Assembly (NCBI RefSeq): GCF_026210795.1
Contig: NC_089458.1
Span: 62,001 to 126,000, forward strand
Reading direction: 5' to 3'
DNA: 64,000 nt
DNA from: Rhizophagus irregularis
Lineage: Eukaryota > Glomeromycota > Glomeromycetes > Glomerales > Glomeraceae
In this document: piece after piece, positions 2,316 to 59,030 of the stretch
Position numbering within the stretch: the first letter of the stretch is position 1
Layout: every line of letters starts with the position of its first letter
Translations under genes and position numbers: made by a program
Notes under the pieces: generated by a model
Database searches by the model: none
The model's input: the letters and a program-made list of their open reading frames with translations, nothing else
What the model was told of the DNA's origin: nothing

Positions 2316-5300
2316 CTAAAAAATATATTTATTTACGAAATATTCATTTTGTTTATCAAATCGGGGTACTATGTGAACGACACCATGTATAGACTCTATA
2401 GCTACAAAGTTATATAATTCTATCAATTTTAAGTGAGGACATCCATATAAATATGGGTTCCTTTTAGATTTAAAATCGTACCATTGAATTAATGCGAGAT
2501 TTAGCGGTGGGTCTGTTAATACTTCTGCTAACAATAAGGCCTATAAATAATAAATATTTATTAATACTTTATAATAAATTATTACATAAATTGGAAAAAT
2601 ACCTGTCCATAACAAACACTGGTAAAAAAATGATTTATCTTACACATATCTTACACATATTGGGTACTCAAAATGTAGAAAATCATACACAAATAATACA
2701 CATATCATACACATATCGGGTACTAATATATATATCATACATATATCAGGTACCTAATAGGTATACTATATATATAAGTACCCGATATGTGTATGATATG
2801 TGTATTATTTGTGTATGATTTTCTACATTTTGAGTACCCGATATATGTAAGATATGTGTAGGATATGTGTAGGATAGACCATTTTTTTACCAGTGAAAGT
2901 CCTTTGTCTGATATATAATCATTTGATTCTTCAGAATCCATTGAAATAGCTATGTCGCTAAACCATACTTTATTATGATACCTGTTTGTGGCACGCATTA
3001 TGGCACCATTTTCCAGTGTTACCGATCCGTATATGTTTATTCAGGGTTTCACCAATAATTGTGAACCCATCAAGTAAATCTAGATATGAATCCAGACAAC
3101 TTATAAATCTAGCAAAACCGGTCTTCATTTTATTGTCTACGGAATCTTTTTTTTCATTAAAAAATGTATTTGCATCTTGTAAAGAGAAATCAAAGAGTCT
3201 TGCAGAAAATTTACAAGTGCGAGGTGTTTTTGCTGGATTCACTAAATGTTGAGACATTCCACAGGTCGAAGGGGCGCCATTGTCCAAAATTCAAAAATGC
3301 AAATTCCCCATTTTCCCTAAAATGTGGGAAATTGTGGAAAATGCTGCATTACGCTGAGCAATTTTTTGGAATAGCATTGTTACAACATTATCCGATTTAG
3401 CAAATCTTATGAAATTTTGGGAAAATGCTACATTATATTTCAAATGTAACATTTTTGTAACATTTCGTAACATTGTTATAACATTGTCATTAAAATCAAA
3501 TTTTGCTTTTTTTTTGTCAAATGTTCCAATTTTCTTGCAAATGGTGCATTTTTATGAAAATGCCACATTTTATCTCCAATGTGATATCATTGTAATAACA
3601 TTTCATAAAATTGTTATAACATTGTCAATTAAAATCAAATTTTGTCAAATATTTCGATTTCCTAGCAAATGGTGCATTTTTTTATGAAAATTCTATATTT
3701 TTTGTCAAATGTTGCATATTTTTAGCAAATTTTATGTTTTTTTGGTCAAATGTTTTACTTTCGTCAGAATGTTAAAATGTTACATTTTTTTTTTGAAAAT
3801 GCTCAATAATATGGCATTACACTAGAAAATGTAGCATTTCACCAAATTACACTAAAAAGCATCACAATTATCACATTTTTTGGAAAATTCCACATTACAT
3901 TAAATTATACTAAAAAATGTAGCACTATACTAAATTATGCGGCATTGCACTAAAAAATACCACAATTACACTAGACAAAATAGCATTACACTAAAAAGTA
4001 CCACAATTATCATATTTTTTAGAAAATTTCGTGTTATGTAACATTATGCTAGAAAATGCGGAATTGCACTAAAAAACGCGGAATTGCACTAAAAAATGCG
4101 GAATTGCACTAAAAAATGCGGAATTGCACTAAAAAACGCAGAATTGCACTAAAAACGCAGAATTGCACTAAAAAACGCAGAATTGCACTAAAAAACACAA
4201 AAAAAATACTACAATTACACAGGATAATGTAGCATTACACTTAATTACATTAAAATTGTTAGGATAATTTTTATTAAAATTACGGACATTATTAAATTTA
4301 TAATATTTATATTCTAACGCATTATTTAACATTAAATTCACATTGTTAATATTAACAATGTATCAACACGATGTGTTGTTTAATTTATACAAAACCTTAC
4401 TACTGAAGACTCCCTCTTTTTGTCACTATAAACAGGCGGAGGGAGCAGCAATGGCTCTCCCCCTATAGGTACTTTATGGCCTCTACCTGTTTACAGAGAG
4501 GGGCTTTTCGTAAAGTTATTAGATAGATATATATATATGTATATATATAAGTATATATATACATCTATCAAAAAAATTATAATAAAAAAAAAAAATTTTT
4601 TTCAGGGAAAATGCCCCTATTTATATAAAATTATATATCACGTGCGTCACGTGATATTACTTAATAATTACCGCAGCTTCAACTGCGGTATAACGAAAAA
4701 AAAATTAAGCTTTTTTTAGCAAAAAGCTTAATTTTTTTTCTCACGGCCTTTATTTCTCCTTTCTTTCGCCCTTTACCTTCCTTTTTCTCTCACCTTCCCC
4801 TTCCCTCTTTCTTTCACCTTCACCTTCACCTTCCCTCCCATTCTCCTTCGCCCTTTCCCCTTCTCTCTTTCTCTCCCCTTCCCCCTTTCCCTTCCTACTA
4901 TTATTAACAATAACCATATTAATTATGTAATCAGCGTCGGAATCTTCCAATGAAATGGGTAAGTTTCGAAGCGTTTCGCTTCAAAACTTTTAATAATTTT
5001 TTTTTTATTTTTTAGAAGCATTTCTAACGCTTCTTATACTTTCTTTTTTTTGGTCTTTCGGTATTCGTCTTCGGAAAGCCAGGAAATGGGTAAGTTTCAA
5101 AGCGTTTCGCTTCGAAACTTATTTTTTTTTTTAATTCCTTTTAGGAAACGTTTCTAACGCTTCCTTTTTTTTTGTGTAGGCTTCCGGTGTTTTGATTTCG
5201 GGAAACGAAGAACTGAAAGGTAGCTTTTCGTTTCGAAAACTAAAAAAAAAAATAAATAAAAATTTTTTTTTTTATAAGGAACGTTTTTAACGATCCTTTA

Positions 5301-8300
5301 TTTTTTTTTATAGGTCTTTCCGGCGTATTCAACTTGGAAAAATGAAATGGTAAGTTTCGAGGCATTCACCTCAAAACTTTTTCTAAATTCTTTTTTTTTA
5401 GGAAACATTACTGATGTTTCCTTTTTTTTTGTAGGATTTACGGTGTTTGAGTTTGGGAAATAAGGAAACTAAAGGGTAAGTTGCGAAACTCTTCGAACTC
5501 TTTTTTAAAAAATTAAATTTTTTTTTTATTTTTTTTAGGAAACGTTTCTAACGTTTCTTTTGTCTTTTTGTAGGAACGCCGGACGTTTGGATGAGTTCGA
5601 AACGAACCGGCGAGTTTCGCAACAGTGTCTTGCGAAACTTTATTTTTATTTTTTTATTAAATGAAACGTTAACTAACGTTTCTTTATTTTACTTTTTGTA
5701 GGTTCCGGACGTTAGGATGATGGAAACGACCGGTAAGTTTCGCAATGTTACATTGCGAAACTTAATTTTTTATTTTTTTTTATTATAAGAAACGACTAAC
5801 GTTTCTTTATTTTACTTTTTGTAGGTTCTGGACGTTAGGATGATGGAAACGAACCTGGTCAAGTTTCGCAATGTTACATTGCGAAACTTAATTTTTTATT
5901 TTTTTATTATAAGAAACGTTAACTAACGTTTCTTTATTTTACTTTTTGTAGGTTCCGGACGTTAGGATGATGGAAACGACCGGTAAGTTTCGCAATGTTA
6001 CATTGCGAAACTTAATTTTTTATTTTTTTTTTATTATAAGAAACATTAACTAATGTTTCTTTATTTTACTTTTTGTAGGTTCTGGACGTTAGGATGATGG
6101 AAACGACCGGTAAGTTTCGCAATGTTACATTGCGAAACTTAATTTTTTATTTTTTTTTATTGTAAGAAACGTTAACTAACGTTTCTTTTTTCTTTTGTAG
6201 GTTCCAGACGTTTGGATAATAGAAATCGAAATGAACCGGTGAGTTTCGCAATATTGCGAATCTTATTTTTTTAATTATTATTTTTTTTTTAAAGAAACGA
6301 TACTAACATACGTTTCTTTTACTTTTTGTAGGAACGCCAGACGTTTGATGATGGAGTTCGAAACGAACCGGTGAGTTTCACAACATTGTGTTGCGAAACT
6401 TAATAGTTAATTATTTTTTTTAAGAAACGTTAACTGACGTTTCTTTTCTTCCTTCTTGTAGGAATGCCGGATGAAATTACGACCTGGACTTTGGTGAAAG
6501 GTAATAAGGGAAAGGGAATTAGGGGAATTTTTCATTTTTTTTGTTTATCTAATTTATTAAATTTTTGTTTCTTTTTCATTTTACTTTAAGGGAAAGGATA
6601 AAACGAAAAGGAAAGGGTAAAACGTAAAGGAATGGATGAAACGAAAGGGGAAAAGGGTAAAACGAAAAGGAAAGAGTAAACACAAGGGGAAGAGGAAACG
6701 AAAATAAAAGGAAAAAATGAAAAGGGAAAAGGAAAAACGAAAGGGGAAGGTGAAAATGAACGGGGAAGGTGAAAACGAATGGGAAAAACGAAAGGGAACA
6801 GTGAAAACAAAAGGAACATTTCGAAGGTATACTTCGAAATGTTTGTTTTTTATTTTAATTTTTTTCAACGAAACGTATATTAATGTTTCGTTTTTTTTAT
6901 ATTTTTTAGGTTTGGCGGCTCATTGGACAAACCGGAATTCAATATTTCGAAGGTATACTTTGAAATATTTTTTTTATTTGATTTTTTTTAACGAAATGTA
7001 TATTAATATTTCGTTTTTTTATTTTTTAGGTTCAACGGTCTTTGAACGTATGGAATTTAACATTTCGAAGGTATATACTTCGAAATGTTTCTTTATTTTA
7101 ATTTTTTTCAACGAAACGTTTATTAACGCTTCATTTTTTTCTTTTTTTTTTAGGTTTACACTGGCTTCTACTTTGGCACTGGACATTTGATACATGAATG
7201 AATTAGAGGTGCAGATTATCCATAGATTATCGTTAAATAATAATAATTGTACATTTATTAATAAATAAAATTATAATAAATTATGTGAAATTATTAAAAC
7301 AGTGTTTTAAATTGTCGTAAGGTTACACTAAATTGTTTAAAATTATTACTAAATTTCACTCAATTGTCCAAAATTTCACTAAATTGTCTCTGAAAATGTT
7401 GCATTTATACCGTTTACACTCAATTGTCCAAAATTATCCTAAATTTCACTAAATTATCAAAAGTTTAGCTAACATTTACCGAAAAAATGCAAAATTCACC
7501 ACAATTTTCCACAATTTGTATTACGTTTGCACAACATTGCTGAAAAATTCACCTAAATTTTCAACAGTTTATATAACATTACTAAAAATACACTACAATT
7601 TACCACAATTTGCATTACGTTTGCATAAAATTACTAAAAATTTGACTAAATTCACCACAATTTGCATTACGTTTACATAAAATTACTAAAAATTTGACTA
7701 AATTCACTACAATTTGCATTACGTTTACATAAAATTACTAAAAATTTGCCTAAAATTTACACAATTTACAATACGTTTACATAAAATTACTAAAAATTTA
7801 ACTAAATTCACCACAATTTGCATTACGTTTACATAAAATTACTAAAAATTTGACTAAATTCACATTACGTTTACATAAAATTACTAAAAATTTGACTAAA
7901 TTCACTACAATTTACATAAAATTACTAAAAATTTACCTAAAATTTCCCACAATTAATGATAATTTACTGAAAAATTTCTCAACATTTGAATTAGGAATTC
8001 TGTAGGAATTCCGCCATTTTGACAAAATTTGCCAAATTGTAAGACCTCCATTATCCCAAAATTGTAACACAATTTACCCCAATTTACCGGGATAATTCTC
8101 AATTTGCCAGAAAAATTCCAGGCAAATTTTGCGACAATGACATCTGTTCGACCTGTGTTCTAATAGATATTGCTTGACGTTTTATCTATTAATTTAATTT
8201 CCATCTTAAGTTATATAATAAATATATACAATAAATAAATTTCCAAATACTTACAGTTCGTAAAAGCTGAGGTTTGACATCTTTTTTATTGCTAATTCGG

Positions 8301-21866: not shown

Positions 21867-24786
21867 TGTATATTACTTATAGTTACCTAATCTTCAATTG
21901 CCGAATATATTTTTTCCAAAGATCCGTGCTTCTATACGGTTATCCTCCTGCGGTTCTCCAGACCTTCTAGGGGCTATTGACCTACCTGTTCACTCGGTTT
22001 GCTGTCTCACTGCCTCCAATAAGAAAATGAACGGAATCCTGAATCTGTTTCAGATGTCATCAGCAAGTTTTAAACAGGCGTATAAAGTGTTGAAAAACGC
22101 CATGTGTTGCTCAACGCCAAAAAACGTAGGAAAACGAACCCTTTGTTAATCAACGCCACTTAAAAACGTTGAAAAACGTGTAAATCAACACTCATTTAAG
22201 TGTAAAACTACACATAGTAAAACAATGATAGTTTAAAAACGTGTATACATGTTATAAAAACGCGTATATTGATATTAAAAACACGTATAGCAACAGTATT
22301 TTTTTAGTCATCGTACGATAGTTAACTTTAATTGTAGTATTAGTAATTTATTAACATATACTGTATATTATTGTATATTATTAACATATAAAATTTAATT
22401 GTAAAATATTGTATATTTATTTATAAAATACAGTACAATACAAATAATACAAATACATTATCTAAAGAAATTAACCTCTTGTTATAATCGGATTGCCGCG
22501 GATTTTTAAGCGATCAACGTACTAAATTTCCATTGACAAAGCGCCCCTGGTGACACAACCATAACAAGGTGAGTTTCAAATAAGAAAAAACAAAAATTAA
22601 AAGTTTCGTTAACGAAACTTACACAATCTTATCCAATATTCCAAAAACTGACCGAAGCCTACAAAAATAAAAGAAATATTAGAAAATGGTTTATATTAAA
22701 AAAAAATGAAAATAGAAGTTTCGTAATTACGAAACTTATGATCTGATCGATCCAATATCAATTAAAATTAGGAAAGTTTCGTAATAAAATGTTACGAAAC
22801 TCACCAATCTTTAGCCCAGAATCCCGAAGCCTACAAATAAAAGAAATATGGATGTCAACAATACGTTTTCAATAAAAGAAAATACAAATAAAAATAAGTT
22901 TCGAAAATCTGCGAAACTCACCGTTGACCCAAACTGAAATCCAAAACCTACAGAAAAGAAAAAGGAAACATTAATTAACGTTTCCTAAAAAAAATTTAAA
23001 GAAAAGTTTCATGTTATATTATGAAACTTACTCATTTCCCTATAAAGAAAAATCCAAGTACCAAGCTGACCTACGAAAGAAAATCCAGAGCCGAAAAGAA
23101 TCTACAAAAAAAAAGAGAAACATTCAGTTAGAACGTTTCTTAAAGAAAAAAAACAAAAAAAAACGGAAGTTTCGTAACGAAATGCACGAAACTTACCGTT
23201 TCATGGCCCGTATCCAATCCCATACTCTTGAACCTACAAAAAGAAAAAGGAAACATTCAGTTAGAACGTTTCTTAAAGATATTGTTTCATGACGAAACGA
23301 AACTTAACTTTACGTTAGCCCTTATCCAGATATCCTGAAACCTAAAAATAAAGAATAAAGGAAACGTTAATAAGCGTTTCCTAATAAAAAAATTTTTAAA
23401 AAAAAGCTTTGTGCAAAATTACCGCGTATCTAATACCGGATATTCCCAAACTACAAAAATGAAAGGAAACGTTCAGTTAGAAAGTTTCCTAATAAAAAAA
23501 TTAAAAAAAATATAAGTTTCATTTTTAACGAAACTTACCATTTTAAACTTTCAAACTCAACTTCCGAACCTACAAAAAAAAAAATAAAGGAACGTTAATA
23601 AACGTTTCCTAATAAAAATTAAAAAAAATTAATTTTATGATTCGAATCTTTAAAACTTACCATATTATCCAAGATTCGAAGTCGAAAATTCCTACAAAAA
23701 AATATCATATAGAAACGTTAGAAACGTTTCCTAATGTTTTTTAAAAAAGAAATTTTTTAAAAAGTTTCGAAGTGAAGCGTTCACTTCGAAACTTACCGTT
23801 TTCAATATTCTGGAACGAAAACGAGCCAAAAGACCTACAAAAAAAACAAAGGAAACGTTAGAATCGTTTTCTTATAAAAAAAAAGAAAAAAAAAATTTTA
23901 AAAGTTTCGAAGTGAAACGCTTCGAAACTTACCCTTTGTATTCCCCGAAAGACCTACAAAAATTATAAAGGAAACGTTAGAAACGTTTCCTTATAAAAAA
24001 AAATGAAAAAAAAAATATTTTTATAAGTTTCAAAGCGAAACTTACCATTTGCATTTCCCGTTTCCCAAAGAAATACCTACAAAAAAAACAAAGGAAACGT
24101 TAGAACACTTTCTTATAAAAAAAATAATAAAATTTTTTCTTAAAAAGTTTTGAAGCGAAACGCTTCGAAACTTACCCTTTGCACTTTTGCACTTTCCCGA
24201 AAGACCTACAAAAATTATAAGGGAAACGTTAGAATCGTTTTCTTATAAAAAATAAAAAAAAATATTTTATAAGTTTCGAAGAGTCGAAACTTACCCTTTG
24301 CATTTCCCGATTCCCAAAGAAATACCTACAAAAAAACAATATAAAGGAAACGTTAGAAACGTTTCTTATAAAAAGAAATTAAAAAAAATTTTTTTTTAAA
24401 AAGTCACAAAACGCTTCAAAACTTACCCTTTCCTCCGTTTTCCAAAAAAAAACCTACAAAAAAATAAAGGAAACGTTAGAAACGTTTCCTTATAAAAATA
24501 AAAAAAAATTTTTTTTTAAGTTTCGAAGCGTAAAAATTACGCTTCGAAACTTACCCTTTTTCCTGTTTCCCAAAAAAAAGACCTACAAAAAGAATTTAAA
24601 GAAACGTTAGTAAACGTTTCTAAAAAAAAATTAAAAAATAAATGAAGTTTCGCAACGTTCGTTGCAAAACTTACCATAATATTCGAAATCCCGTTTAGAA
24701 AAAGAAATCCGCAGACCTAAAAAAGAAAGAAAAACGAAACGTTAGTCACGTTTCGTTAAAATAAATTTAAAAAAAAATTAATTTTA

Positions 24787-25216: not shown

Positions 25217-25429
25217 TACCTGTCCGTGAATCATCCAGGAAGCCGCGGTCCTAAAAAAAATAAAAAATCGAAACGTTAGATACGTTTTGTTAAAAACAAA
25301 CAAAATCAAAAAAATTTTGAAGGTTTACCTTCAAAATTCCCATCCGTGAGCCATCCAGAAAGCCGCGGTCCCTAAAAAAATAAAAAATCGAACGCGTTAT
25401 ACGTTTCGTAAAAAAACAAACAATTAAAA

Positions 25430-26100: not shown

Positions 26101-26289
26101 AAAAAATGAAAATAGTTTCGCAACGTTTCGTTGCGAAACTCACCAAACTTTTTTCCGTAAAAGGCTCATATCTCCGGAATTAATGACCTTATATTACGGA
26201 ATTTATCAACTTATTACATTTTCTGTGAATGGATCCGTGAAGGCTCATTTTTACGGAGTTTTTACAGAAATAACGGATAAAACTTTTAT

Positions 26290-38739: not shown

Positions 38740-40659
38740 TCTGTTCTATTTTTATACCATTCGCCATGTAATCCATAATTTCCATGTTTTCCATCGCAAA
38801 TAGGACATGGTGAGCTCCACGGCTGAGGTGATGCAAAATTATAATTATCAATCCCTCTAAAACTATTTCAGAATTTCAAGTATGGGAAGTGCTCTAAGAT
38901 GGATTTGATAATTAATTCTGGATCGGGTCTGGCTTCGAAGGTGATGGGCCTTTTTCTGGCTTTGAATTTATAACTTCCGATTCGTATCTTTCTGATATTC
39001 TGTGGAAATTCATTTCAGTTTCTTTTTTATATCTTTTGTATAATTTGGAACGAATCTTATCTGTCAAAATCTTGTAAGCCCGAGTTAATTTGGCATGCCA
39101 ATCCAGATAATTGGCGGTTAGTATTTTAACAGGCTCAGTCATTTTCCTTTTTATATGACTGCAAACAATTTAAATCATTTTTCTACCAATATAGACCTAT
39201 TCGTTTGAAAAAAAGATTAAAATTCACAAAATTATTGTAAACGAATGAGGCTATACGCAACTATCTCGAATTTCACGCTGTTCGTATTTAATAAAGTAAG
39301 ATCCTGCTTTATACCTACCTTCTATTTTTTCATCATCATGACCTAATTTGTATAATGGGCAGATATAGTCCCCTGATGTCTCATCAGTAATCCCATAATA
39401 ATCAAAATTTTCACTACTACATTCTCTATATAGATTAGGATATTAATCCAATATCTTGTTGCGAAAATAGGAATAATCATAAGCTGGCTTAGGTTGGGAT
39501 GCAGATGATACACTTGCTTGAAACATGTCTGATGAAATCATTTCTGGTAAAGCATTTGGCTGAGAGAATGCTGGTACTTCAGCTGGTATGGTTTGAGATG
39601 CATTTACGATTTTTTCGCTAGTTATATGACCCATGCTCAACAGTGGAATCGGAGCAGTTGTGTCAGCTAGTGATCATTTCTGAAGTCGCATGATTTCTGA
39701 TCGTGAACATTGTTCGCGGTTTTATTGGTGATATTTAAGTTCGATCTATAATGTATTGAATTTGAAGGTTAGTGGAGTCTGGAAATACTGTCAGCACTAT
39801 AGGTAACCCAATTAACCATATGCCATTCTATATTTTTAATCTTTTTCAGAGTTATAGAATCGTAATCATATCCAAATAGCTTATTGATCTTCCTTGCTTT
39901 ACTTGTTATCTTGCGCAAATATTCATCAGAAACGCCTGAAAGGTATGGTTTCATTTCATTATAAATCTGGGACCTTGCTGTCTTATCCTTAAGATTTTTA
40001 TCCTCAGATCTAAGCTTCATGACCTTATCTTCGAATCTTTCAGAGTATCGACCCCAAGATGAAATCTCTTCCTGCTTAGCTTTGATCAAATTTTTCCTTG
40101 CTATACTTGCTTGATAAAATAAACGGGCAAGCTCTTCTGTGACAGGTGAAGAATTAGAATGCTCTTTATCAATAAATTCGGTATTAATAAATTCCCTCTG
40201 GAAATCATCCACCAAAAATCCTTGTAATAAGCCACTAGTCGAAAAAGGACAATTCGGCCTAAATTTGACCAGGTCGAATATATAGCCGAATAATCGGTCT
40301 AACCTCGTCAAATTGGAGTCGAATTTTCGGGCGCATTTAGGGTGCCAATCGTCCCAAATTCGGACTAATTATTCGACCATTATTTAGGTTTAAATTGACC
40401 AATATTCGACCTTAAAACTTTAAGCCGAATTATGGTCTAATAACAACCCATTTATTTATGAATTTATTTTGATTTTTTTTATCAAATTTATTAAATAAAT
40501 GTATTTATTAATGCTTAAATACTTTATAATTATATTATTATTATTGCATCTATCTAATTTACAAAAAATATTGCTAATTCAAATACAATTCCACAATTAC
40601 ATGATTCATGTATTCGTATATACGAATCTTTGATTGTTCTTTAGCAATCCACCCGAACC

Positions 40660-43150
40660 TATAAAAAAAGAGAAGAACGGTTAGTAACCGTTCATAATAT
40701 TAAAAAAATAAGAAAAAAAACCAAGATTCGTACTTACTTACGAATCTTTGGTTTTTTCCGTTCTTCAGAAGACACATGAGACACCCGAGACCTAAAAAGA
40801 AAAGAAAAGAACGGTTATTAGTAACCGTTCATAATAATATTAAAAAAAAATCAAAAAATAAACCAAGATTCGTACTTACGAATCTTGGTTCTTCTTTTCC
40901 CGAAGGTCGGGAAGCCCCCACTCCACCCGATCCTAAAAAAAGAAAGAACGGTTATTAGTAACCGTTCATTAATATTGAAAAAAAAATCAAAAAAAAATAA
41001 ACCAAGATTCGTACTTACGAATCTTGGTTCCTCTTTTCCCAAAGGTCAGAAGCCCACCCGATCCTAAAAAAAAAAAGAACGGTTATTAGTAACCGTTCGT
41101 AATATTAAAAAAAAAAATTAAAAAAAATAAACCAAGATTCGTACTTACGAATCTTGGTTCTTCTTTTCCCGGCGTCGGAAGCCCACTCCACCCGATCCTA
41201 AAAAAGAAAGAACGGTTATTAGTAACCGTTCATTAATATTAAAAAAAAAATTAAAAAAATTAAACCAAGATTCGTACTTACGAATCTTGGTTTTCCACAC
41301 AAAAGCCCGCCCGAACCTATAAAAAAGAAAGGAACGGTTAGTAAACCGTTCCAAAATGATAAAAAAAAATAAAAATAAAAAATATATAAAGATTCGTACT
41401 GTACTTACGAATCTTTATCTTTGGGTTTTCGTTCTTCGGAAGCCCACCCGAACCTAAAAAAAGAAAGAATGGTTAGTAAACCATTCGTAATAATAATAAA
41501 TAAAAAAAAGATTAAAGATTCGTACTTACGAATCTTTGGGTTTTCGTTCTTCGGAAGCCCACCCGAACCTATAAAAAAAAGAAAGAATGGTTAGTAAACC
41601 ATTCGTAATAATAATAAATAAAAACAAAAATTAAAGATTCGTACTTACGAATCTTTGGGTTTTCGTTCTTCTAAGCCCTACCCGATCCTAAAAAAGAAAA
41701 GAACGGTTATTAGTAAACCGTTCATATATTAAAAAAAAACAAAAAAATTAAACCAAGATTCGTACTTACTTACGAATCTTGGTTTCTTGGTTTTCCTTTC
41801 TTCGGAAGCCCAGATCCTAAAAAAAAGAAAGAACGGTTATTAGTAACCATTCGTAATATTTTTTTTAAAAACAATAAAAAAAAAAAATCCAAGATTCTTA
41901 CGAATCTTTGGAGATTTCCCGTTCTTCGGAACACGGAAGCCCACCCGAACGGCCGAACCTATAAAAAATAAAAGAACGGTTATTAGTAACCGTTCGTAAT
42001 ATTTTTTTAAAAAATAAAAAAAATCCAAGATTCTTACGAATCTTGGAATTTTCCCGTTCTTCGGAACACGGAAGCCCATCCGATCCTAAAAAAAAGAAAA
42101 AGAACGGTTATTAGTAACCGTTCATAATATTAAAAAAAAAATAAAAAAAAATAAGATTCGTACGCAATCTTTGGGCTGCTTCTTCGGAAGCCTCCCGAAC
42201 CTATAAAAAAATACAAGAACGGTTAGTAAACCGTTCGTAATAATAAAAAAATAACAAAAATAAATTAAAGATTCGTACTTACGAATCTTTGGGTTTTCCG
42301 TTCTTCGAAGCCCACCCGAACCTAAAAAAGAAAGAACGGTTAGTAAACCGTTCATAACGATAATATTTAAAAAAAACAAAAAAAAAAAAAATATTTGATT
42401 CGTAATACAATACTTACGAATCTTAAAATACTCTTTCGGAAATCCATCTCCTTTCGTTTTACCCTTCCCTTCCTCGTTTTCCCCTTTCGTTTTCCCCTTT
42501 CGTTTCACCCTTTCGTTTTCCCCTTTCGTTTTCCCCTTTCGTTTTACCCTTTCGTTTTACCCTTTCGTTTTCCCCTTCGTTTTCCCCTTTCTTTTCCATT
42601 TTCCTTTTCCTTTCGTTTTACCCTATCCCTTTCGTTTTTAGCTTCCCCTTTCGTTTTTAGCTTCCCCTTTCGTTTTTACTTCCCCTTTCGTTTAGGGCTT
42701 CCCCTTTCGTTTTTAGCTTCCCCTTTCGTTTTTAGCTTCCCCTTTCGTTTTTAGCTTCCCCTTTCGTTTTTAGCTTCCCCTTTCGTTTTTAGCTTCCCCT
42801 TTCGTTTTTAGCTTCCCCTTTCGTTTTTTCGCTTCCCTTTCGTTTTTAGCTTCCCCTTTCATTTTTTCGCTTCCCTTTCATTTTTCGCTTCCCTTCCCTC
42901 GTTTTCTCTTCCCTTTCGTTTTCACTTCCTCTGAAACCTATAAAAAAACAAGAACGGCTGGTAAACCGTTCTATAATATTAAAAAAATCCACTATTCGTA
43001 ATAATACTTACGAATCTCAGTCACGTCTTGGATCTACAAAGCAAAAAACGAAAACGTTAGTAAAACGTTTCGTTAAAAAACAACAAAATAAAATTTGAAG
43101 GTATATATATACCTTCGAAATAGGAGTCCGGCCTTCTAAATGGGCGTCTT
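40660..43150 (-). other. Micro-exon array 3; donors inside hairpin loops
   Basis: About eighteen units on minus. In sense each exon ends CCAAGATTC or CAAAGATTC and the donor GTAAGT sits in the middle of the palindrome AAGATTCGTAAGTACGAATCTT. The intron then has a hairpin GAACGGTTTACTAACCGTTC-like, with the yeast-type branch point TACTAAC or TACTAAT in its loop, and ends TTTTTTAG. Exons are 35-57 nt and begin G(T/A)TCGGGTGGGCTTCCG. Several are multiples of three (39, 39, 39, 45, 45, 48, 57) but others are not (35, 43, 49, 50, 53). The 39-nt type would encode VRVGFRRTKTQRF. Open frames here read through intron and are not genes. Confidence 0.78.
42440..42950. repeat. Tandem CCCCTTTCGTTTTTAGCTT tract within array 3
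   Basis: A 19-bp unit is repeated about a dozen times (42640-42870), flanked by diverged CCCTTTCGTTTTCC words. Purine-rich in the sense of array 3, like the tract at 6480-6830 in array 1. Open frames across it are artefacts. Confidence 0.85.
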
Positions 43151-43164
43151 GGACCTACAAAAGA

Positions 43165-43340
43165 AAAAAAACTGAGGGACGAAGGGAAAGGGGAAAGGGG
43201 AAAAGGATAAGAAAAGTAAAGGGACGAAGGGAAGTAAAAGGAGGGAAAGAGGAACGAAGGGAAAGGGGAAGGGGAAGAAAGAAAATTAAAAAAAGTTTAA
43301 AAAAGAATGCAATAAGATGATCCTTTTTTAAACTTTTAAT
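43165..43340 (-). promoter_or_regulatory. Leader of array 3: hairpin plus pyrimidine tract
   Basis: In sense: ATTAAAAGTTTAAAAAAGG pairs with CTTTTTTAAACTTTTTTTAA (43287-43340), followed by a C/T-rich tract (43165-43285). Sequence differs from the AAGCTT hairpin of other elements but the order hairpin, pyrimidine tract, first splice donor is the same. Only ~150 bp lie between it and the TIR. Confidence 0.5.
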
Positions 43341-44743
43341 ACGCGTAACGCATAACGCGTAACGTTTATTCAACAAGGTTGAATATATGTCTAATCGTAG
43401 ATCATTACTAATTGAAGTCGAATTTTTTAATTTTAGTCGAATATAGGCCGAATTGTATTAAGGCCGAATGTTCCTTTTTCGACTAGCTGAAGTCCGTACA
43501 ATTTCAGCATAAGTTCTGACTAATTCTCTCTGGAAAACATCCTCATTAAGTCTTTCAGGCATTTTTTGCACAGAGTCTTCCAATGAAATTTTTTCTTAAT
43601 TGTGAACAATGTTCACGGTTTTTGTGTTACTTTCATTTTCATCACATTTCTGTAGGTTTCTGTAACACATGATAAGTCCGAAGACAGTTGACTCACACTG
43701 AATTTTCTTTTCTTTGTTACGTTGCCTTATCTCATCACTAACCCTTTTCTTATGTACCTCATCGAAGAAATCATCTGTCTCTTTAACCTCCAATGACTTA
43801 GTTTCTGTGCGAATAGGTTTGCATACATTAGAATTAAATGTGCTATCAGATGTATTTGATGATTTCGCCATCTTTTCTAGTTTACCCAGGCGAACAACAT
43901 TGTTGGGTTCTCGACAGAGCTGGCATTAGCCAATAATTGTTTGATTTCCTTAATATCATCATCATCCATTTTGGAAATAAGGTTGGTCTTTTCTTTATCT
44001 CTCTGCTCTAATCTCGTGAATCTAGCTTCATATTCTTCCAAAGCGCACCTTAACTTTGCATTCTTAGCCTTGACCTCTGCATTCTCATCCATAACCTCGA
44101 TATATTTGGCCTTAACCTCAGCATTCTCACTCGCTCAATAATGCGTTGTCTTAACGAATCAAGTTCAGATGACACGATAATATTTTAATGCTCTATAATG
44201 CTAGTATTCAAAATCAGAAAAATATGTAGACCATTTTCGCAATTTAACATTGTTCACGGTTTTGCCAAGAAATTTTTTATTATTACATGCAAAAAAATAA
44301 ATACATAGTTTGGGACAAATGTTTAAGACAGCACCAGTTAGTACTCTGGAGTAATACATCCCTTTCGGCTGTAATAAGACTCTAGTTGCCTTTCCCTTTC
44401 AAGACGACGATAAATTTTTTTGGCATGCTTGGAGCAATAGCCCGTATAAGATAATGTAAGTTTATTGCATATTCTACATGGAAATTTTAGCATATTATTT
44501 GCACCCGATTTCCAGTGAAGCGAACATCCTGCCAAGCAGGTGCAGACTCAGCCACAAGCGCTCCCATCTCTTTTGATATGGAGACAGGTTATATGATCCA
44601 TCTAAAGTATTTAGATTATATTCTTTCTTCACTTCCATTATAAAAATCTGATTTCAAATTATAAAAAAATCCGAATTGAACTGTGGTGGAAAAAGTATAT
44701 CATAAATGATCAATCATATACAACAGCATAAATCATATCATCT

Positions 44744-49594: not shown

Positions 49595-50869
49595 TTAATC
49601 TATTCTTTTTCTGAACAAATATGAGAAATAAGGGAGGGCTGATTAATCAACCTGGCATTTCATCTATATCACTTCTTAACATTTTTATATATCTGAAAAA
49701 AATAAACTGAATATTTATCGCACAATCTGGCCAAAAGCGCTGTGTATGGCTCGTCTATTTCCAAATTTCAGCTAACATTGCATCAATTTCTGCTAACATT
49801 GAATCCATATCCATAGTCTGAGACTTTTTTGGATCATTATTTCTAGACTGAGATGTAGGTGAAGAAGCCTGTGTTTAGGGTTTTGGACCATCACCTGTCT
49901 CTGGTTCAGATTTGGGCTCCTTCTTCGATTTTGGATCACCTAAAGCGTAATTTTTTCCTGCATCAAGACGGTTAATTTTATGTCTTATTGCGATTTCTGA
50001 AAAATGGTTGAGATGTTAGAGGAGGAATAGGGATTTGGGCGCACTGAACCATCGGCGTGTTTAGCTCCTATTTTCTTAGAACCTCAGGGGTAATCTCATC
50101 TTCGTCCCTGATTAGTTTTTAATAGCCCGATCGAATGGGTCAGGTCAGGTCAAGTTAATTGATAAACCTGACCTGAAATTTTTTTTCAGGTCCAGGTCGG
50201 TCAGGTTATATCAGGTTGTCTGTACCTGACCTGAAACCTGAAAGAAAAATTTCAGGACTATTTTTATTAAAGTATTGAAAAAAACTGGTACAAAACTTTT
50301 TTTTTAATATAATACTAGTATTCACCTGTTAACTACGTTAACTGTTAATTGCCAATTCAAATATAATGAAAATCAATGATAATAAAAAACTCCATTTTTT
50401 GAATTTCACATTCCCCAACTAATACTTTATTCAAAAAAAAAATTTGTTTATATTTATTATTTTATTTTAAAAAAATTTTTTGTTATGCATTATTAGTAGT
50501 ATATGTAAAATACAAAAAAATAGCAAAGGTAAAAAATCGGTTTCTATTTTGCAATGTTTATAATATTATTCCAAAACCCACCACCTAAAGTTCCAAACAA
50601 ATGACTTATAAAAAATTGGCCCGCCTTGATCTGATTTCAAAAGTAATATAATATTAGTTGTTATTTATTAAAGAAAACCTTTTCTCCTATTTACCTGTAA
50701 ATCCAGTCTAACTATATATTCACCGCCCTTCAACCTATCACATGATAAGTTAGAATTTTTTTTATTGGTGGTTTATTATAATTTAGATTATCGATATATC
50801 TATTTTTTTAAAAAAAAATATTTTTTTAATTTGTTTAGGAACGTTTTTTAACGTTCATTTGGTTAATTC

Positions 50870-52875
50870 TCGTAGGAATGCCCCTAAAGACGAAATCGGA
50901 CCTCTAAAAATGAAAAGATAGGAAGGTTTTTTTTATTTTTTCATTAATTTCGTTTAAGAACGTTTTTTAACGTTCTTTATTGTCTTTTTTTTTAGCGCCC
51001 TTTGGAGACTTTTAGACTATTTTCCTTATTGATTATTTCAGCTCTCTGGTTCTAAGGTGCGTCTTTTTACTTTTTCCTTCCCATTTCCATTCATTCTAAC
51101 TCCACTTTCTTCTTAGGTTTCGGCTTGGATCTTTAATGGAAAGCTTCTTTTCTTTTTAGGACTTGGCTCTTCGGCATTTCAGCTCTTCCAAGGTGTGTTC
51201 TTTTCTTTTTTTTTCCTTTGTCTTTTTTTTTTGTTCATTCTAACCCTTCTTTCTTCTTAGGTTCTAGCTCTTGATTTGCGAATCTTTAATAAAAGACGGC
51301 ACATACAGGTGAGTTGTTTTTTCTTTTCGCTCTTGCTTTTCTTTTTCATTGTTTTTCGTTTGTTCTAACCCTTCTTTCTTTTTAAGTCCTGGTTCTTGAT
51401 TTGCGAATCTTTAACAGAAGATGGTACACACGGGTGAGTTGTTTTCTTCTTTTTTGTTTCATATTTTCATTCTTCTTTTTCATTTGTTCTAACCTTTCTT
51501 TCTTCTTAGATCCCGGCTCTTAATTTGCGAATCTTTAACAGAAGATGGCACACGCAGGTGAGTGTTTTTTTCTTTTTTGTTCTTATTTCTCTTTTTTGTT
51601 CTTTTTTTTCGTTTGTTCTAATCCTTCTTTCTTTTTAGGTCTTGGCTCTTGATTTGCGAATTTTTAATGGAAGACGGCACACACAGGTGAGTTGTTTTCT
51701 TCTTTTTTGTTCCTTTTTTTTGTTTGTTCTTTTTCATTTGTTCTTTAACCTTTCTTTCTTTTTAGGTCTTGGCTCTTGATTTGCGAATCTTTAACGGAAG
51801 ATGGCACACACAGGTGAGTTATTTTTTTCTTTTCGTTTTTGCTTTTTTTTCATTTTTTTTCGTTTGTTCTAATCTTTCTTTCTTTTTAAATTCAGGCTCT
51901 TAATTTGCAAATCTTTAACAGAAGATGGCACACGCGGGTGAGTTGTTTTTTTCTTTTTTGTTCTTATTTTTCTTTTTTGTTCTTATTTTTCTTTTTTGTT
52001 CTTCTTTTTCGTTTGTTCTAACTTTTCTTTCTTTTTAGGTCCTGGCTCTTGATTTGCGAATCTTTAACGGAAGATGGCACATATGGGTGAGTTGTTTTTT
52101 CTTTTTGTTTTTGCTTTTCTTTTTGTTCTTTTTCATTTGTTCTAACCTTTTTTTCTTTTTCGTTCTTTTTGTTCTTATTTCGTTCTTTTTGTTCTTATTT
52201 TGTTCTTTTTGTTCTTGTTTCATTCTTTTTGTTCTTGTTTCATTCTTTTTGTTCTTGTTTCATTCTTTTTGTTCTTATTTCGTTTTTTTCGTTCTTATTT
52301 CGTTCTTTTCATTCTTATTTCATTTTTTCATTCTTATTTCGTTCTTTTCATTCTTATTTCATTCTTTTCGTTCTTATTTCGTTTTTTTGTTCTTATTTTG
52401 TTCTTTTCGTTCTTATTTCGTTTTTTTTATTCTTATTTCGTTCTTTTCGTTCTTATTTCGTTTTTTTCATTCTTATTTTGTTTTTTTCATTCTTATTTCA
52501 TTCTTTTCATTCTTATTTCGTTCTTTTTGTTCTTGTTTCGTTCTAACTTTTTTCTGTTCTTAGGTCCCAGTTCTTTAGCATTTTGGCTTTTTGGTTCAAA
52601 GGTATATCTTTTTTTTCATTTCTTTGTTGTTTCATTTTTTTGTTCTTTTCGTTCTAATAAACTCTTCATTCCTCTTAGGTCCTAATTCTTTTTTTGGCAA
52701 CTTTGGCGCTTTGGCATTCAGTTCCACATTTCAGTTCTAAGGTGGGTTCTTTTTGTTTATATTTGTTTTCTTTTTCATTTTTACTTCGTTCTAACTTATT
52801 TCCTCTTAGGTCCCAGTTCTTTCTTCGGCTACTTTGGCACTTTGGCATTTCGGTTTCACATACAGGTAAGTCCTT
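50870..52875 (+). other. Micro-exon array 4 with in-phase 48-nt exons
   Basis: Exons bounded by TTTCTTTTTAG and GTGAGT, with TTCTAAC ~20 nt before each acceptor. Seven exons around 51261-52086 are alike; most are exactly 48 nt (for example 51261-51308, ~51511-51558, ~51640-51687, ~51766-51813, ~52039-52086) and encode VLALDLRIFNGRWHTQ or variants (IPALNLRIFNRRWHTQ). Two deviate: one has TTTTTAAG at its acceptor (about 51390), another TTTTTAAATTCAG, where the next AG would give 42 nt and keep frame. Earlier units (50830-51000) have branch-point hairpins such as GAACGTTTTTTAACGTTC. Later exons (38, 63 and 56 nt at about 52565, 52680 and 52811) are different. Start codon and termination not determined. 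Peptide-repeat coding potential is the strongest of all five arrays. Confidence 0.78.
52100..52555 (+). repeat. TTCGTTCTTATTTCGTTCTT tandem tract
   Basis: About twenty diverged copies of a ~20-bp T-rich unit within array 4; probably an enlarged intron. The Phe/Leu/Ser-rich open frames over it are by-products. Confidence 0.88.
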
Positions 52876-53397
52876 TTCTTTTTTTTTTGTTTTCTTTTCG
52901 TTTTCTAAATTATTTCTAACTTTTTTATCTTTTCTTCTTTTTTTTTTGTTTACTTCTTTCGGTTCTATTTTTTTCACTACACTTTTTTTATTTTTTTTTA
53001 AGAAAAAGGAAAAAGGAAATGACTAAACGCGTAATTATTTTGACGCGTTATATATACATAAATATCAAGATCAGTACTTTTGCGCATGATGTGGTCACAC
53101 AATTGTAAATGGTTAATTTATGGGTAGTCTAAACATAACGCCCACGTGATTGCAGTGTTTTTAAATATTTAGATTAAGATTATGAAAAAAAACGGTTTTG
53201 CAACGTTTTTTATTAAAATATTGAAAAAAAATATTGCAAAACGTTTTTTTTAAATGTTTTCGCAACGTTATTATTGAAATATCAAAAAAAAAACGGTACA
53301 AAACATTTTTTAATATAATATTATGAAAAAACATTTTCGCAACGTTTTTTCTCAAAATATTGCGATTCAACATTTTTATATTGATTTTGTATAAAAA

Positions 53398-53645
53398 AAG
53401 TGAGTTGCAGTATTGCGATTCACTTTTTTTTATATAGAATTAATATAAAAAAGTGAATCGCAATATCGCAACTCACTTTTATTATATAAAATCAATATAA
53501 AAAAGTGAATCGCAATACCGCAACTCACTTTTTTTATATAGAATCTATATAAAAAAGTGAATCGCAATACTGCAACTCACTTTTATTATATAAAATTAAT
53601 ATAAAAAAGTGAATCGCAATACTGCAACTCACTTTTATTATATAG
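53398..53645. repeat. Array of ~50-bp alternating palindromes
   Basis: Five units with AAAAAAGTGAATCGCAATAC, CGCAACTCACTTTT and TATATAGAATTAATAT, so that AAAGTGA...TCACTTT stems alternate along the DNA. Located in the subterminal zone of the hAT-like element, where transposase-binding repeats are usual. Confidence 0.8.
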
Positions 53646-54915
53646 TAGAATCAATAGTTTCAGGTCATCAGGTCAATCAGGTCAGGTCAATCTTCATACC
53701 TGACCTGAATTTTTTTTAAAAAACTCATACCTGACCTGAATTTCAGGTCAGGTCAGGTCAGGTTACCTGAATTTGGCTGACCTGTTCGGAGCTCTAGTTT
53801 TTAAACTCTTTATGAATTTGGCAAATGGTACATTATTACTCTTTCCAGTTTCAGTATAAACTGGATCACGCAACTTTCCAGCCTTAATAGTGTCTTGAAT
53901 CCAGGTAAGTAATTCTCTAGCATGTTCTGGATCTTTTTCCATAGAGAGTAAGCGACTAGGCATCGGTTTATCTCTCTGTTTACGACATCCAGTGCAATAC
54001 CAAGAATAACCAGCTTTATACCATGCTGGCGGATCTTCAGAATCTGGTTTGTAATTAATAATCTGGAGAGATGATACTTCAGCAGGCCTCATGCTTAGCA
54101 TTACTATCACATCCGCGAGATCCTGCATAGAGGGAATTTTAGAAGTATCGATATTCTGGAGTCTCCTATGCACTTTCTCAAAGGTGAAATGTTCTGGAGT
54201 TCTATCTGGATTAGCCAAGCGCTTCTCAGTCCGCTCTTGCTGGATTTTGTTGGAAGCTGTAGTGGTTTTCGAATCTTTGGCATAGCGATCAATAAGTTCA
54301 CGATCGGCCTCGTACTCTGCTAAATACTTACAAAATCGTGATTGGTTTGAGCTAGAAGCAACCATTTCCTTATCATCAATTACTCCATCCTTATTTCCTT
54401 TTGGTCCCAAAGATAAAGTATTAATGAAAATATCCCACTTATCTTCGCTTTTAGCGACTTCTTGGGCCTTTTTCCTGACAGAATATATCTTATTTCTCTG
54501 ATATGGCACGAGAGCCTCTATCTGCTCTTTGCACTTCTTTTTTCAGTACCTCTTGTAAGGGCTTCCTTAACGCACTTACGGGCCTTCCAATCTGGAAGTG
54601 AAGCATTAAGTTCAGAAGCATGTTCGCTTAATTATTCTAGAGTGGAGTCGGCCATCAAATTATGCTTTTCTAAGAACTGCTTTAAGACCAATACAAAGTT
54701 ATTAGCTTTAGGTTTTCGGGTCTTTGGAGTAGCCATTTTGGTAGCCATGTCGATATAAGTAGACTTCAGTTGTTTCTTCTATTTATATTATGTGAGAAAA
54801 AATTCAATTCGAAAAAATCCCTCAATCATAGATTTCGGGATACCATATAGTAGAGGGTTAAAGGAAGAAAAAAAATAATAATATAGCTTATACTCTAGAC
54901 CGCCATAACACATTT

Positions 54916-56649: not shown

Positions 56650-59030
56650 CATTCATCCAAAGCCCAAGAACTGAAAGCCGAATTCTACAAAATAGAAAAA
56701 TAAATTAAAATAAAAATTAAAAAAAATATTTTTTTTAAAGTTTCGAAGTTTCAAAACTCACCCATATATCCAAATCCAAGAACTGAAAGCCGAATTCTAC
56801 AAAATAGAAAAATAAATTAAAATAAAAATTAAAAAAAATAATTTATTTTAAAAAAGTTTTGAAGTTTTACTTCAAAACTTACCCATATATCCAAACCCAA
56901 GAATCGAAAGCCGAATTCTACAAAATAGAAAAATAAATTAAAATAAAAATTAAAAAAAATATTTTTTTTAAAAGTTTCGAAGTTTCGAAACTCACCTGTA
57001 CATCCAAAGCCCAAGAACCTAAAGCCGAATTCTACAAAATAGAAAAATAAATTAAAATAAAAATTAAAAAAAATATTTTTTTTAAAAGTTTCGAAGTTTC
57101 GAAACTCACCCGTACATCCAAAGCCCAAGAACTTAAAGCCGAATTCTACAAAATAGAAAAATAAATTAAAATAAAAATTAAAAAAAATATTTTTTTTAAA
57201 AGTTTTGAAGTTTTACTTCAAAACTCACCCGTACATCCAAAGCCCAAGAACCTAAAGCCGAATTCTACAAAATAGAAAAATAAATTAAAATAAAAAAAAT
57301 TTTAAAAAAAATAATTTATTTTAAAAAAGTTTTGAAGTTTTACTTCGAAACTTACCCATATATCCAAACCCAAGAACTGAAAGCCGAATTCTACAAAATA
57401 GAAAAATAAATTAAAATAAAAATTAAAAAAAATATTTTTTTTTAATAAAGTTTTGAAGTTTTACTTCGAAACTCACCTGTACATCCAAAGCCCATGAACC
57501 GAAAGCCGAAATCTACAAAATAAAAAAATAAATTAAAAAAAATTTTTAAAAAAAATAATTTATTTTAAAGAGTTTCGATTCCTTCGCTTCGAAACTCAAC
57601 TCACCTATATATTCAACGCAAAGCCGAAACCTACAAAATAGAAGAAAAAAAAAATCAAATAAAATATAATAAAAGCTTTGATACAGCTCGTTTGAGCTGG
57701 CTCACGAGCTATGAGCTGGCTCGTGAGCTCCAGAACTTTTTTTCTTTATTATTGCCGGCATTACGTGATTTTTAATTTTGGTCAGAATTAAGTGATCGAC
57801 ATGGAAATTTCCTTTTTTAAAATCCTGTGTAATGCATTTCTCCATTTTTGATAAGAAATAAAATTGCCTTTTTTTGGATTGTGTAATGTTACTCAAGTAT
57901 TCAAAAAGGAAATTTCCATGTCAATTACTTAATTCTGGCTAAAATTAAAAAAAATCATGAAAAATATGCAGAATTTGATAAAAGCTCAGTTCGAGCCAAG
58001 CCACCTTAAAATTCAGCTTGGCTCAGCTCGAGGTTGGCTCAACACGAGCCAAGCTCAAAAATTCTAATTGAACTGAGCCAGCTCGAATTTTGGCTCAGTT
58101 CGGCTCGAGCCAGCTTGTACAGAGCTTTAATCCTGACGTCTGAAACCTACAAAAAGAAAAAGAAACTTAGAAACATTTCCTTACAAAAAAAATTTAAAAA
58201 ATATTCTTTCAGTTCCTTACTTTCTGAAGTCGAATACTGAAAACCTACACAAAAGAAAATAAAGGATCGTTAAAAATGTTCTTTATAAAAGTAAAAAAAA
58301 AAATTTAAAGTTTTGAAGCGAAACGCTTTAAAACTTACCATCATTTCATTTCCTCGTTTTATTAAAAGCATTAAAAATCCTACAAAAAAGAAGAAAGAAA
58401 GCGTTAGAAACATTTTCTAAAATAAATTAAAAAAAAATCAATAAGTTTCGCTTTAAAACTTACTGATTCCACTTCTAAAATCGAATACCGAAAGATCTAT
58501 ATAAAAAAATAGGAAACGTTAGAAATGTTTTTTTACAAAAAAGAATTAAAAAAAGATTTTTTAAAAAGTTTCATAATAAAACAAAACTTACCCAATATTC
58601 TGAACACTCTGATCCTACAAAAAGGATAAAGGAAACGTTTTCTAAACGTTTTCTAATAAAAAATTAAAAAAAAAATTGAGTTTCGAAGTGAAAGTGTTTC
58701 ACTTCGAAACTTATCATATCGAAGTAAATACTTCAAAACTTTATAGTTTACCGAACTTAAAGATAAACTATACTCCTCTTTAAAGGTTTTTCTTCATCTC
58801 GCCTACTAAACATAAGAATTCCACGTATCGACCTAAGAATGAATAAATCATATCTTGGAACCCTTCTCAACAATGCGAATTTTACGGCAAAACTCATTTT
58901 TCGAAATCGAATATGTTAAATATCTACAAAAAACAAGTATAGGAGTCAGTTTTTAAAAGAAATTAAAAACACAATTTTTAAAAAGTTTCAAAGCGTTTTA
59001 TTTCAAAACTTACCATTATTTTTCTGAAAA
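56650..59030 (-). other. Micro-exon array 5 with near-identical units
   Basis: On minus. Eight or nine units at 56650-57600 with a ~120-bp period: exon AATTCGGCTTTAGGTTCTTG then GGCTTTGGATGTACAG (36 nt; others 35 nt), donor GTGAGT or GTAAGT followed at once by TTTCGAAACTTC-type hairpin, and acceptor TTTTGTAG. Upstream units (58130-59030) are more diverged and keep GAAACGTTTCTAACG-type branch hairpins. 35- and 36-nt exons are mixed, so the frame shifts along the array unless exons are skipped. The 36-nt exon in one frame reads FGFRFLGFGCTG. 57672-58128 is an insertion. Confidence 0.76.
57672..58128. mobile_element. ~457-bp fold-back MITE
   Basis: Ends AAAGCTTTGATACAGCTCG and AAAGCTCTGTACAAGCTGG (complement of right end). 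Whole element folds: GAGCTGGCTC and TCGAGCCAGC words outside, GGAAATTTCC-type arms and a 57770-57960 palindrome inside. Target duplication unclear. Splits array 5. Confidence 0.75.

What the first reader, a model, noticed from the sequence alone, without database searches (positions are those of the whole stretch)
4959..59030. Micro-exon arrays as shared cargo of transposons with unrelated ends
Seen: five arrays (4959-7190, 22600-26150, 40660-43150, 50870-52875, 56650-59030) of 30-60-nt exons alternating with ~70-110-nt introns, each in one orientation, each inside a separate element. The four elements with visible ends differ: CACAGGTCGAA with 3-bp duplication, CATCAGCAAGTTT with ~11 bp, TCGAAAAAGG with CTAG or TA, and TAG-starting ends with 8 bp. 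Known: these sizes fit CACTA, MULE and hAT groups. Inference: one type of spliced cargo has moved between, or been captured by, several transposon superfamilies. I know of no described system like this; SP7-type fungal effectors with repeats and alternative splicing are the nearest idea.
Basis: partly seen in the sequence, partly recalled or inferred. Interest (0 to 1): 0.95.

Follow-up and report, generated by a model that had tools for sequence, protein, structure and literature searches.

The report
Micro-exon arrays shared between transposons
In a symbiotic soil fungus, several unrelated families of jumping DNA carry the same kind of cargo, a string of tiny exons separated by hairpin-framed introns, and pieces of that cargo have been exchanged between families; what the cargo does is still unknown.

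Summary
A strict splice-signal detector finds the five arrays in the window, none in 200 kb sampled from two other contigs and none in shuffles; it can miss arrays. The ends differ: CACAGGTCGAA with 3-bp duplications, CATCAGCAAGTTT with 11 bp, CTAGTCGAAAAAGG, and a hAT-like end with 8 bp. Cargo sharing is real. L041, an element of the CATCAGCAAG family by leader and tail, carries about 940 bp of the array type that the window shows inside a CTAGTCGAAAAAGG element, between stretches of its own family's sequence. Of 41 loci with this array type, 16 lie with CATCAGCAAG ends or leaders, 18 with CTAGTCGAAAAAGG ones, 7 with neither. The CACAGGTCGAA and CATCAGCAAG families share a second array type. 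The fourth array (hAT-like) is not homologous and lacks hairpins. Most introns carry a hairpin at the donor and usually one at the branch motif. Exons are not in frame (42 of 117 lengths divisible by 3). Five deposited Rhizophagus irregularis protein predictions cross the proposed junctions. No RNA was examined: splicing and function remain inferred.

The parts
3260..8157 (+). Element 1: non-autonomous CACTA-like element, ends CACAGGTCGAA, TSD ttc; carries array A1
   Evidence: both ends shared with L037, which has transposase-like ORFs
4380..4760 (+). Leader of element 1; ends in the hairpin AAATTAAGCTTTTTTTAGC..AAAGCTTAATTT, whose 15-mer TTAAGCTTTTTTTAG also occurs in A2 and A5
   Evidence: 214 candidate copies, 40 scored, these 40 are 89-100% identical
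4959..7190 (+). Array A1: chain of 8 rule-defined exons at 5016-6370, further and degenerate units to 7190
22058..26924 (-). Element 2: ends CATCAGCAAGTTT, TSD GTTTCAGATGT/GTTTCAGAAGT (10 of 11)
22600..26150 (-). Array A2: exon chains 22623-23233 and 23539-24716, one exon at 25220-25250; 25380-26150 hairpins without clear exons
40235..43486 (-). Element 3: ends CTAGTCGAAAAAGGA
40624..43160 (-). Array A3: exons ending in AAGATTC, donor GTAAGTAC in the loop of CCAAGATTC/GAATCTTGG, branch hairpin GAACGGTTACTAATAACCGTTC
50123..53796 (+). Element 4: hAT-like ends TAGCCCGA..TCGGAGCTCTA, 8-bp TSD GTTTTTAA
50870..52880 (+). Array A4: mostly 48-nt exons, no intron hairpins; 4 places above 350 bits in the genome including this one
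56650..60723 (-). Element 5: A1-family leader region (A1-like 59110-60723) and array A5 (56650-59030); left end lost

Best explanation
These are non-autonomous TIR DNA transposons of at least three unrelated families whose interior is a gene-like unit: a leader with a T-rich hairpin and a pyrimidine tract, then a tandem array of micro-exons and short U2-type introns. SHOWN: the array architecture, its recurrence, different ends, and shared and chimeric arrays between families. INFERRED: arrays grow by tandem duplication of exon+intron units. Units pass between families when one element inserts into another's array or when homologous arrays recombine. The unit is transcribed from the leader side and spliced; the donor and branch-point hairpins fold each intron locally, so that neighbouring near-identical introns are removed one by one. 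The product is a spliced, mostly non-coding RNA. MOST SPECULATIVE STEP: being a densely spliced transcript is itself the advantage, for instance by making carrier elements look like host genes to the fungus's RNA-silencing machinery.
For: Detector: 5 arrays in the window, 0 in the 200-kb sample, 0 in shuffles. Chimera L041: 120-bp windows match A2 best up to about 1200, A3 from about 1200 to 2140, A2 again mostly from about 2160; A3-L041 array 75.9% over 957 bp, E 3e-177; A2 and A3 share only short matches (at most 87 bits), none at their ends. 41 loci: 16 CATCAGCAAG-type, 18 CTAGTCGAAAAAGG-type, 7 unassigned; chance of a same-strand leader within 6 kb about 0.0008 per locus and leader type. 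A2-array query: 9 of 40 loci downstream of A2-type leaders, 16 of A1-type, 15 of neither. At C10 a CTAGTCGAAAAAGG element (5096653-5100259) sits between two pieces of an array flanked by CATCAGCAAG ends. Intron hairpins: mean donor fold z -2.3 to -6.6 in 14 of 15 sequences, against order-1 Markov shuffles; 87 of 100 A1/A2/A5-type donors with a stem of at least 8 (one mismatch allowed), 50 distinct arm pairs, own arms 96.7% paired against 87.7% when swapped (maximum 92.2% of 1000), n=36. Branch hairpin with up to 2 mismatches: 607 places on the forward strand, 0 for the reversed control. Donor hairpin pattern: 180 on the forward strand, 0 control. Both patterns are nearly palindromic, so the reverse-strand counts (533, 180) largely repeat the same places. 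Exon frame: 42/35/40 of 117 lengths are 0/1/2 mod 3. Five deposited R. irregularis protein predictions cross 11 junctions.
Against: No RNA data. In four close copies exons (2.6%) diverge as fast as intron middles (2.5%) and donor hairpins faster (4.1%); donor hexamers are lower (3 of 288) but acceptors are not clearly so (3 of 144), so present-day selection for splicing is not shown. Several units have lost a splice site, and L040 and L041 give no strict chain. A4 has no hairpins and is not homologous; A5 has no branch hairpin signal (z -0.38). L035 has a leader but only four weak exons. A1-A2 array similarity is only 65-68% in A/T-rich DNA. Hairpins were picked by a search for pairing, which inflates own-arm pairing, and a looser hairpin count was not well separated from its shuffles. 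Stop-free frames of the joined exons exceed nucleotide shuffles in 4 of 5 window arrays, though not exon-order permutations. Nothing here tests the silencing idea.
Confidence: 0.6

Rival explanations
1. Inert passenger: relics of a once-spliced gene, multiplied as minisatellite-like tandem repeats inside dead elements; the splice signals are fossils and nothing is made.
For: Exon and intron diverge alike in recent copies; several splice sites are broken; exon lengths drift.
Against: Donor, branch, tract and acceptor recur in order in most units of unrelated array types; stems vary by compensatory pairs; other annotators' predicted genes use the junctions.
Confidence: 0.27
2. Protein-coding micro-exon genes, effector-like, in the manner of SP7, schistosome micro-exon genes or aphid bicycle genes.
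For: Three A3-type, one A4-type and one A1-type predicted proteins of 68-134 aa are in databases. Longest stop-free frames of joined exons exceed the 95% point of nucleotide shuffles in A2, A3, A4 and A5, not in A1. A4 exons: 5 of 7 divisible by 3. A5 has a 90-aa ATG-ORF within its exons.
Against: 42 of 117 exon lengths divisible by 3, as expected by chance (close copies are counted apart). When exon order is permuted, which keeps the repeats, no array of 14 is unusual (17-100% of permutations reach the observed length), and antisense frames are about as open or more open. Top ATG-ORF per array 22-67 aa, except 148 aa in A5, which begins in a long insert.
Confidence: 0.12
3. Introner-like elements: the individual hairpin introns are the mobile units and the transposons merely accumulated them.
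For: Hairpin introns in many near-identical copies resemble fungal introner-like elements, described as folding into stable structures (PMC3443670 passages). 18 of the 100 listed exact copies of the branch hairpin have no other listed copy within 3 kb.
Against: The repeated unit is exon plus intron, and 82 of the 100 listed exact copies of the branch hairpin have another within 3 kb. Whether isolated copies lie in host genes was not examined.
Confidence: 0.08
4. Convergence: each family built its array on its own and the likeness is general.
For: A4 fits this.
Against: L041 chimera and the 16/18 split of one array type between two end types.
Confidence: 0.04

Closest known systems
Pack-TIR elements (Pack-MULEs, Pack-CACTA; recalled, not looked up)
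   Same: Non-autonomous TIR elements with internal gene-like, exon-intron cargo
   Different: Here the cargo is a tandem array of micro-exons, mostly with hairpin introns, not a recognised host-gene piece, and one array type occurs in two end types
Introner-like elements of fungi (PMC3443670, PMC9024468; passages seen)
   Same: Near-identical introns with stable hairpins
   Different: Here exons repeat too, and arrays sit inside TIR elements
SP7-like effectors of Glomeromycotina (PMC11333574; passages seen)
   Same: Same fungal group; tandem repeats
   Different: Passages describe a conserved intron before the first repeat and a modular repeat protein; arrays here have an intron at every unit and no conserved frame
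Micro-exon genes of schistosomes (abstract starts) and bicycle genes of aphids (mentioned in passages of PMC11333574); otherwise recalled
   Same: Many very short exons in a row
   Different: Those are recalled as encoding secreted proteins; here exons are not in frame and ride in transposons
CACTA/CMC, Plavaka, hAT and MULE transposons of R. irregularis (PMC11075540; passages and abstract start seen)
   Same: Superfamilies reported in this fungus; [quoted passage not shown]
   Different: No array cargo is mentioned in the passages I saw

Membership tests
CACTA/CMC (element 1 and relatives) | 3-bp target duplication, ends starting CAC | tested here: met
   9 of 11 elements examined have identical 3-bp flanks; L031 and L039 do not
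CACTA/CMC (element 1 and relatives) | Autonomous partner with tnp2-type transposase | tested here: inconclusive
   L037 shares both ends and has ORFs of 401, 124, 328 and 309 aa; PF02992 E 6.5e-4, below the curated cut-off
MULE (element 2) | About 8-11-bp target duplication with TIRs (range recalled) | tested here: met
   13-bp TIR, 10 of 11 bp duplicated, one element checked
MULE (element 2) | MULE transposase in an autonomous relative | not tested
   Longer CATCAGCAAG pairs exist but were not fetched
hAT (element 4) | 8-bp target duplication | tested here: met
   GTTTTTAA on both sides, one element
hAT (element 4) | hAT transposase | not tested
   The end has many copies (354 candidates, 40 scored); none was read
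SP7-like effectors | Repeats in one continuous open frame | tested here: not met
   42 of 117 exon lengths divisible by 3; frames no more open than exon-order permutations
SP7-like effectors | Signal peptide and family signature | not tested
   No signal-peptide tool; signature not fetched
Micro-exon genes (symmetric exons; feature recalled) | Exon lengths divisible by 3 | tested here: not met
   42 of 117; A4 departs (5 of 7)
Introner-like elements | Similar introns at many unrelated host-gene sites | not tested
   82 of 100 listed copies of the branch hairpin are clustered; host genes not examined
Introner-like elements | Stable intron secondary structure | tested here: met
   Donor regions in 14 of 15 sequences; A4 is the exception

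The most novel reading that the evidence does not exclude
A self-contained splicing cassette (leader, pyrimidine tract, hairpin-framed micro-exon/micro-intron array) behaves as a selfish module that parasitises several transposon superfamilies, swapping by recombination between arrays, and benefits its carriers because dense splicing hides them from, or diverts, the host's RNA surveillance.
Probability: 0.25. Interest if true: 0.92.

Novelty: new variant of a known kind. Interest (0 to 1): 0.72.

Why it matters
If transcripts are spliced as predicted, the arrays are natural tandem libraries of very short exons and introns, with structure at both the donor and the branch point, in probably hundreds of elements (214, 141 and 198 candidate copies of the three leaders), and would make splicing of micro-exons and its link to transposon silencing directly testable. 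The exchange of cargo between transposons with unrelated ends also bears on how non-autonomous elements acquire new interiors, in a fungus in which two-thirds of transposable elements are said to be unclassified (PMC11075540, abstract start).

Tried and rejected
Rejected: chance composition (0 chains in shuffles and in the 200-kb sample); a conserved protein (nucleotide shuffles had pointed the other way for four arrays, but they destroy the repeats); a known RNA family (Rfam gathering cut-offs, window only, 0 matches); 'all arrays are one cargo' (A4 is separate). A loose count of donor hairpins was not well separated from its shuffles, and in A3, L040 and L041, where the donor lies in the loop, it found few; it was dropped in favour of fold z-scores and the arm-swap test. 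The first parser joined some wrong sites; chains are partial in several arrays. The 41 and 40 array loci were picked by merging the 249 and 137 matches by eye. Literature: searches (open-licence PMC only) listed no paper describing such arrays in this fungus; papers other than PMC11333574, PMC11075540, PMC3443670 and PMC9024468 (passages) were seen as listings or abstract starts only.
Full report
WHAT IS THERE. The window is G000:C30:62001-126000 of a 146.7-Mb, 32-contig genome. A strict detector gives 6 chains, which are the 5 arrays, with 44 rule-defined exons; it gives no chain of 5 or more in 200 kb from C1 and C8, in L001-L008 (8 loci of 3 kb around CACAGGTCGAA ends) or in 10 order-2 Markov shuffles each of the window and the two samples. 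The two sample stretches were arbitrary and interior, and the detector made no chain even of 4 in L040 and L041, which carry array units, so these zeros do not give a genome-wide density.

INTRON ANATOMY. Introns average about 78-105 nt with GTAAGT or GTGAGT, a branch-like CTAAC or TACTAAT, a T-rich tract and TAG. In A1, A2, A3, A5 and the fetched relatives a hairpin lies at the donor: either just inside the intron (AGTTTCGCAATG..CATTGCGAAACT) or with the donor in its loop (CCAAGATTC-GTAAGTAC-GAATCTTGG). Mean fold z-scores of donor regions are -2.3 to -6.6 in 14 of 15 sequences (order-1 Markov shuffles; L040 has only 2 introns); A4 is the exception at 0. A second hairpin often spans the branch motif: 107 of 158 acceptors in 15 sequences have a perfect stem of at least 7 in the preceding 75 nt, and 80 of these 107 hairpins contain a branch-like motif; some of the 107 are the donor hairpin instead. 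A5 folds poorly there (z -0.38). Donor stems of at least 8 pairs (one mismatch allowed) occur in 87 of 100 A1/A2/A5-type donors; 50 distinct arm pairs were seen, pairs 8 to 12 mix AT, CG, TA and GC, and own arms pair at 96.7% against a mean of 87.7% and a maximum of 92.2% in 1000 swaps (36 arm pairs of at least 10). The hairpins were chosen for pairing, so part of this margin is built in. The branch hairpin with up to 2 mismatches has 607 forward-strand places against 0 for the reversed control; its 533 reverse-strand matches largely repeat them, since the pattern differs from its own reverse complement at 2 positions. 82 of the 100 listed exact copies have another within 3 kb.

CODING POTENTIAL. 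Of 117 exons in 15 parsed arrays (three of them near-identical copies), 42, 35 and 40 have lengths of 0, 1 and 2 mod 3. The top ATG-ORF per array is 22-67 aa, apart from 148 aa in A5, which begins in a long insert; A5 also has one of 90 aa. Stop-free frames exceed the 95% point of nucleotide shuffles in A2, A3, A4 and A5 but not in A1. With exon order permuted, which keeps the repeats, none of 14 arrays is unusual (17-100% of 1000 permutations reach the observed length), and antisense frames are about as open or more open. A4 exons are the best coding candidates (5 of 7 divisible by 3). In four close copies (97-98.5% identical) exons differ at 2.6%, intron middles at 2.5%, donor hexamers at 3 of 288 sites, acceptors at 3 of 144 and donor hairpins at 4.1%; the leader differs at 1.6% and the 5' end at 1.1%. 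So the exons show no constraint there, and present selection on splicing is not demonstrated.

GENE MODELS BY OTHERS. With conceptual spliced peptides from A3, A4 and an A1-type array (L036) as queries, five deposited R. irregularis proteins of 68-134 aa came back (3 of 13 candidates, 1 of 84, 1 of 2; the last at a cut-off of 1, its E being 5e-16). Their sequences cross 11 predicted exon-exon junctions with at most 1 mismatch in 9 residues (no chance control was run for that test). They are predictions, and whether reads supported them is unknown to me.

ENDS. Element 1 and its relatives start and end in CACAGGTCGAA; 9 of 11 elements examined have matching 3-bp flanks. L037, 8.3 kb, has the same ends, no array by the detector, and a chain of ORFs with a weak tnp2 match (E 6.5e-4, below cut-off). 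Element 2 has 13-bp TIRs and a duplicated 11-mer with one difference; element 4 has an 8-bp duplication; element 3 has CTAGTCGAAAAAGGA ends. Exact copies genome-wide, forward+reverse: CACAGGTCGAA 366+365, many of the 100 listed pairing at about 350-530 bp, too short for an array; CATCAGCAAGTTT 87+78; CTAGTCGAAAAAGG 38+19.

SHARED CARGO. (i) A1, A2 and A5 share the leader hairpin (exact 15-mer TTAAGCTTTTTTTAG; 73% over 159 bp for A1-A2) and related arrays (65-68% over up to about 1.4 kb for A1-A2), although the ends of A1 and A2 are unrelated. (ii) L041 belongs to the element-2 family by leader (87%) and tail (86.5% over 289 bp), yet about 940 bp of its array is the A3 type, with A2-type sequence on both sides. 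(iii) Among 41 loci merged by eye from the hits with that array (40 of 346 candidates scored), 16 lie with CATCAGCAAG ends or leaders, 18 with CTAGTCGAAAAAGG ends or leaders, and 7 with neither. The lists were incomplete: the top 40 leaders of each type, 100 of 165 CATCAGCAAG places and all 57 CTAGTCGAAAAAGG places; several loci were assigned by one end only, the two C25 loci lie between the same pair of ends, C10:5097069 lies inside both kinds of ends and was counted as CTAGTCGAAAAAGG, and C10:5164734 is loose, with ends 4 and 14 kb away. (iv) The A2 array itself finds 9 of 40 loci behind element-2 leaders, 16 behind element-1 leaders and 15 behind neither. (v) At C10 a CTAGTCGAAAAAGG element sits between two pieces of an A3-type array that is flanked by CATCAGCAAG ends, which shows a way in which arrays of different families come together. 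A4 stands apart: its array has matches above 350 bits at 4 places in the genome, including the window (8 candidates, all scored). Of the 40 places scored for its end and leader, one is the window, one (C6) matches the leader but not the end, and the rest match only the end, about query 15-200 of 743.

MECHANISM. Shown: array structure, different ends, sharing and chimeras. Inferred: transcription from the leader, splicing by the ordinary spliceosome aided by local hairpins, tandem growth of units, exchange by nested insertion and recombination. The advantage (splicing as cover from RNA silencing) is a guess that draws on the link between stalled splicing and RNAi reported in Cryptococcus (recalled; only a search listing seen here).

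VERDICT. The inference of a cargo moving between transposons with unrelated ends is supported for two array types and three end types, not for A4. It is a new variant of gene-carrying non-autonomous TIR elements as far as my searches show. Function is open and RNA evidence is the missing piece.

Noticed in passing
window 2052-13286: Larger element or nested pair: inverted repeats of 64, 47 and 29 bp (CAACACAAATT-rich) about 11 kb apart enclose element 1 and a Plavaka transposase fragment (9041-9649, minus, PF18759 E 8.7e-25).
   Followed up: partly
window 29536-30073: Short 538-bp CACAGGTCGAA element with 3-bp duplication tct and no array.
   Followed up: no
window 25380-26150 and L041 (minus strand) about 200-1230: Run of alternating hairpins (AACGTTGGCTAACGTT, AACGTTTTTAACGTTTCG) without recognisable exons or donors, upstream of the exon array in element-2-type elements; unexplained.
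   Followed up: no
window 42450-42930 and 6590-6810: Long purine-rich tandem tracts (GGGAAGCTAAAAACGAAA) inside A3 and A1 that look, by eye, complementary to the pyrimidine-rich leaders.
   Followed up: no
L029, L030, L031, L033, A3 joined exons: One antisense frame is open over the whole chain of parsed exons (110, 110, 124, 105 and 151 codons), although the splice signals are on the other strand; unexplained.
   Followed up: no
G000 contig starts: 11 of the 120 best leader copies (40 of each type) lie within 100 kb of a contig start against 2.6 expected (P 9e-5; type 2 alone 6 of 40), two of them in this window; contig ends were not examined.
   Followed up: partly
window 53394-53644: About 5 tandem copies of a 52-bp unit (AAAAAAGTGAATCGCAATACTGCAACTCACTTTT...) at the right side of element 4.
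   Followed up: no
window 19191-19868: ORF with a retroviral-type aspartyl protease domain (PF13650 E 9.8e-10), likely a retroelement piece.
   Followed up: no
G000:C10:5094435-5106490: Element-3-type transposon inserted within the array of an element-2-type transposon.
   Followed up: partly
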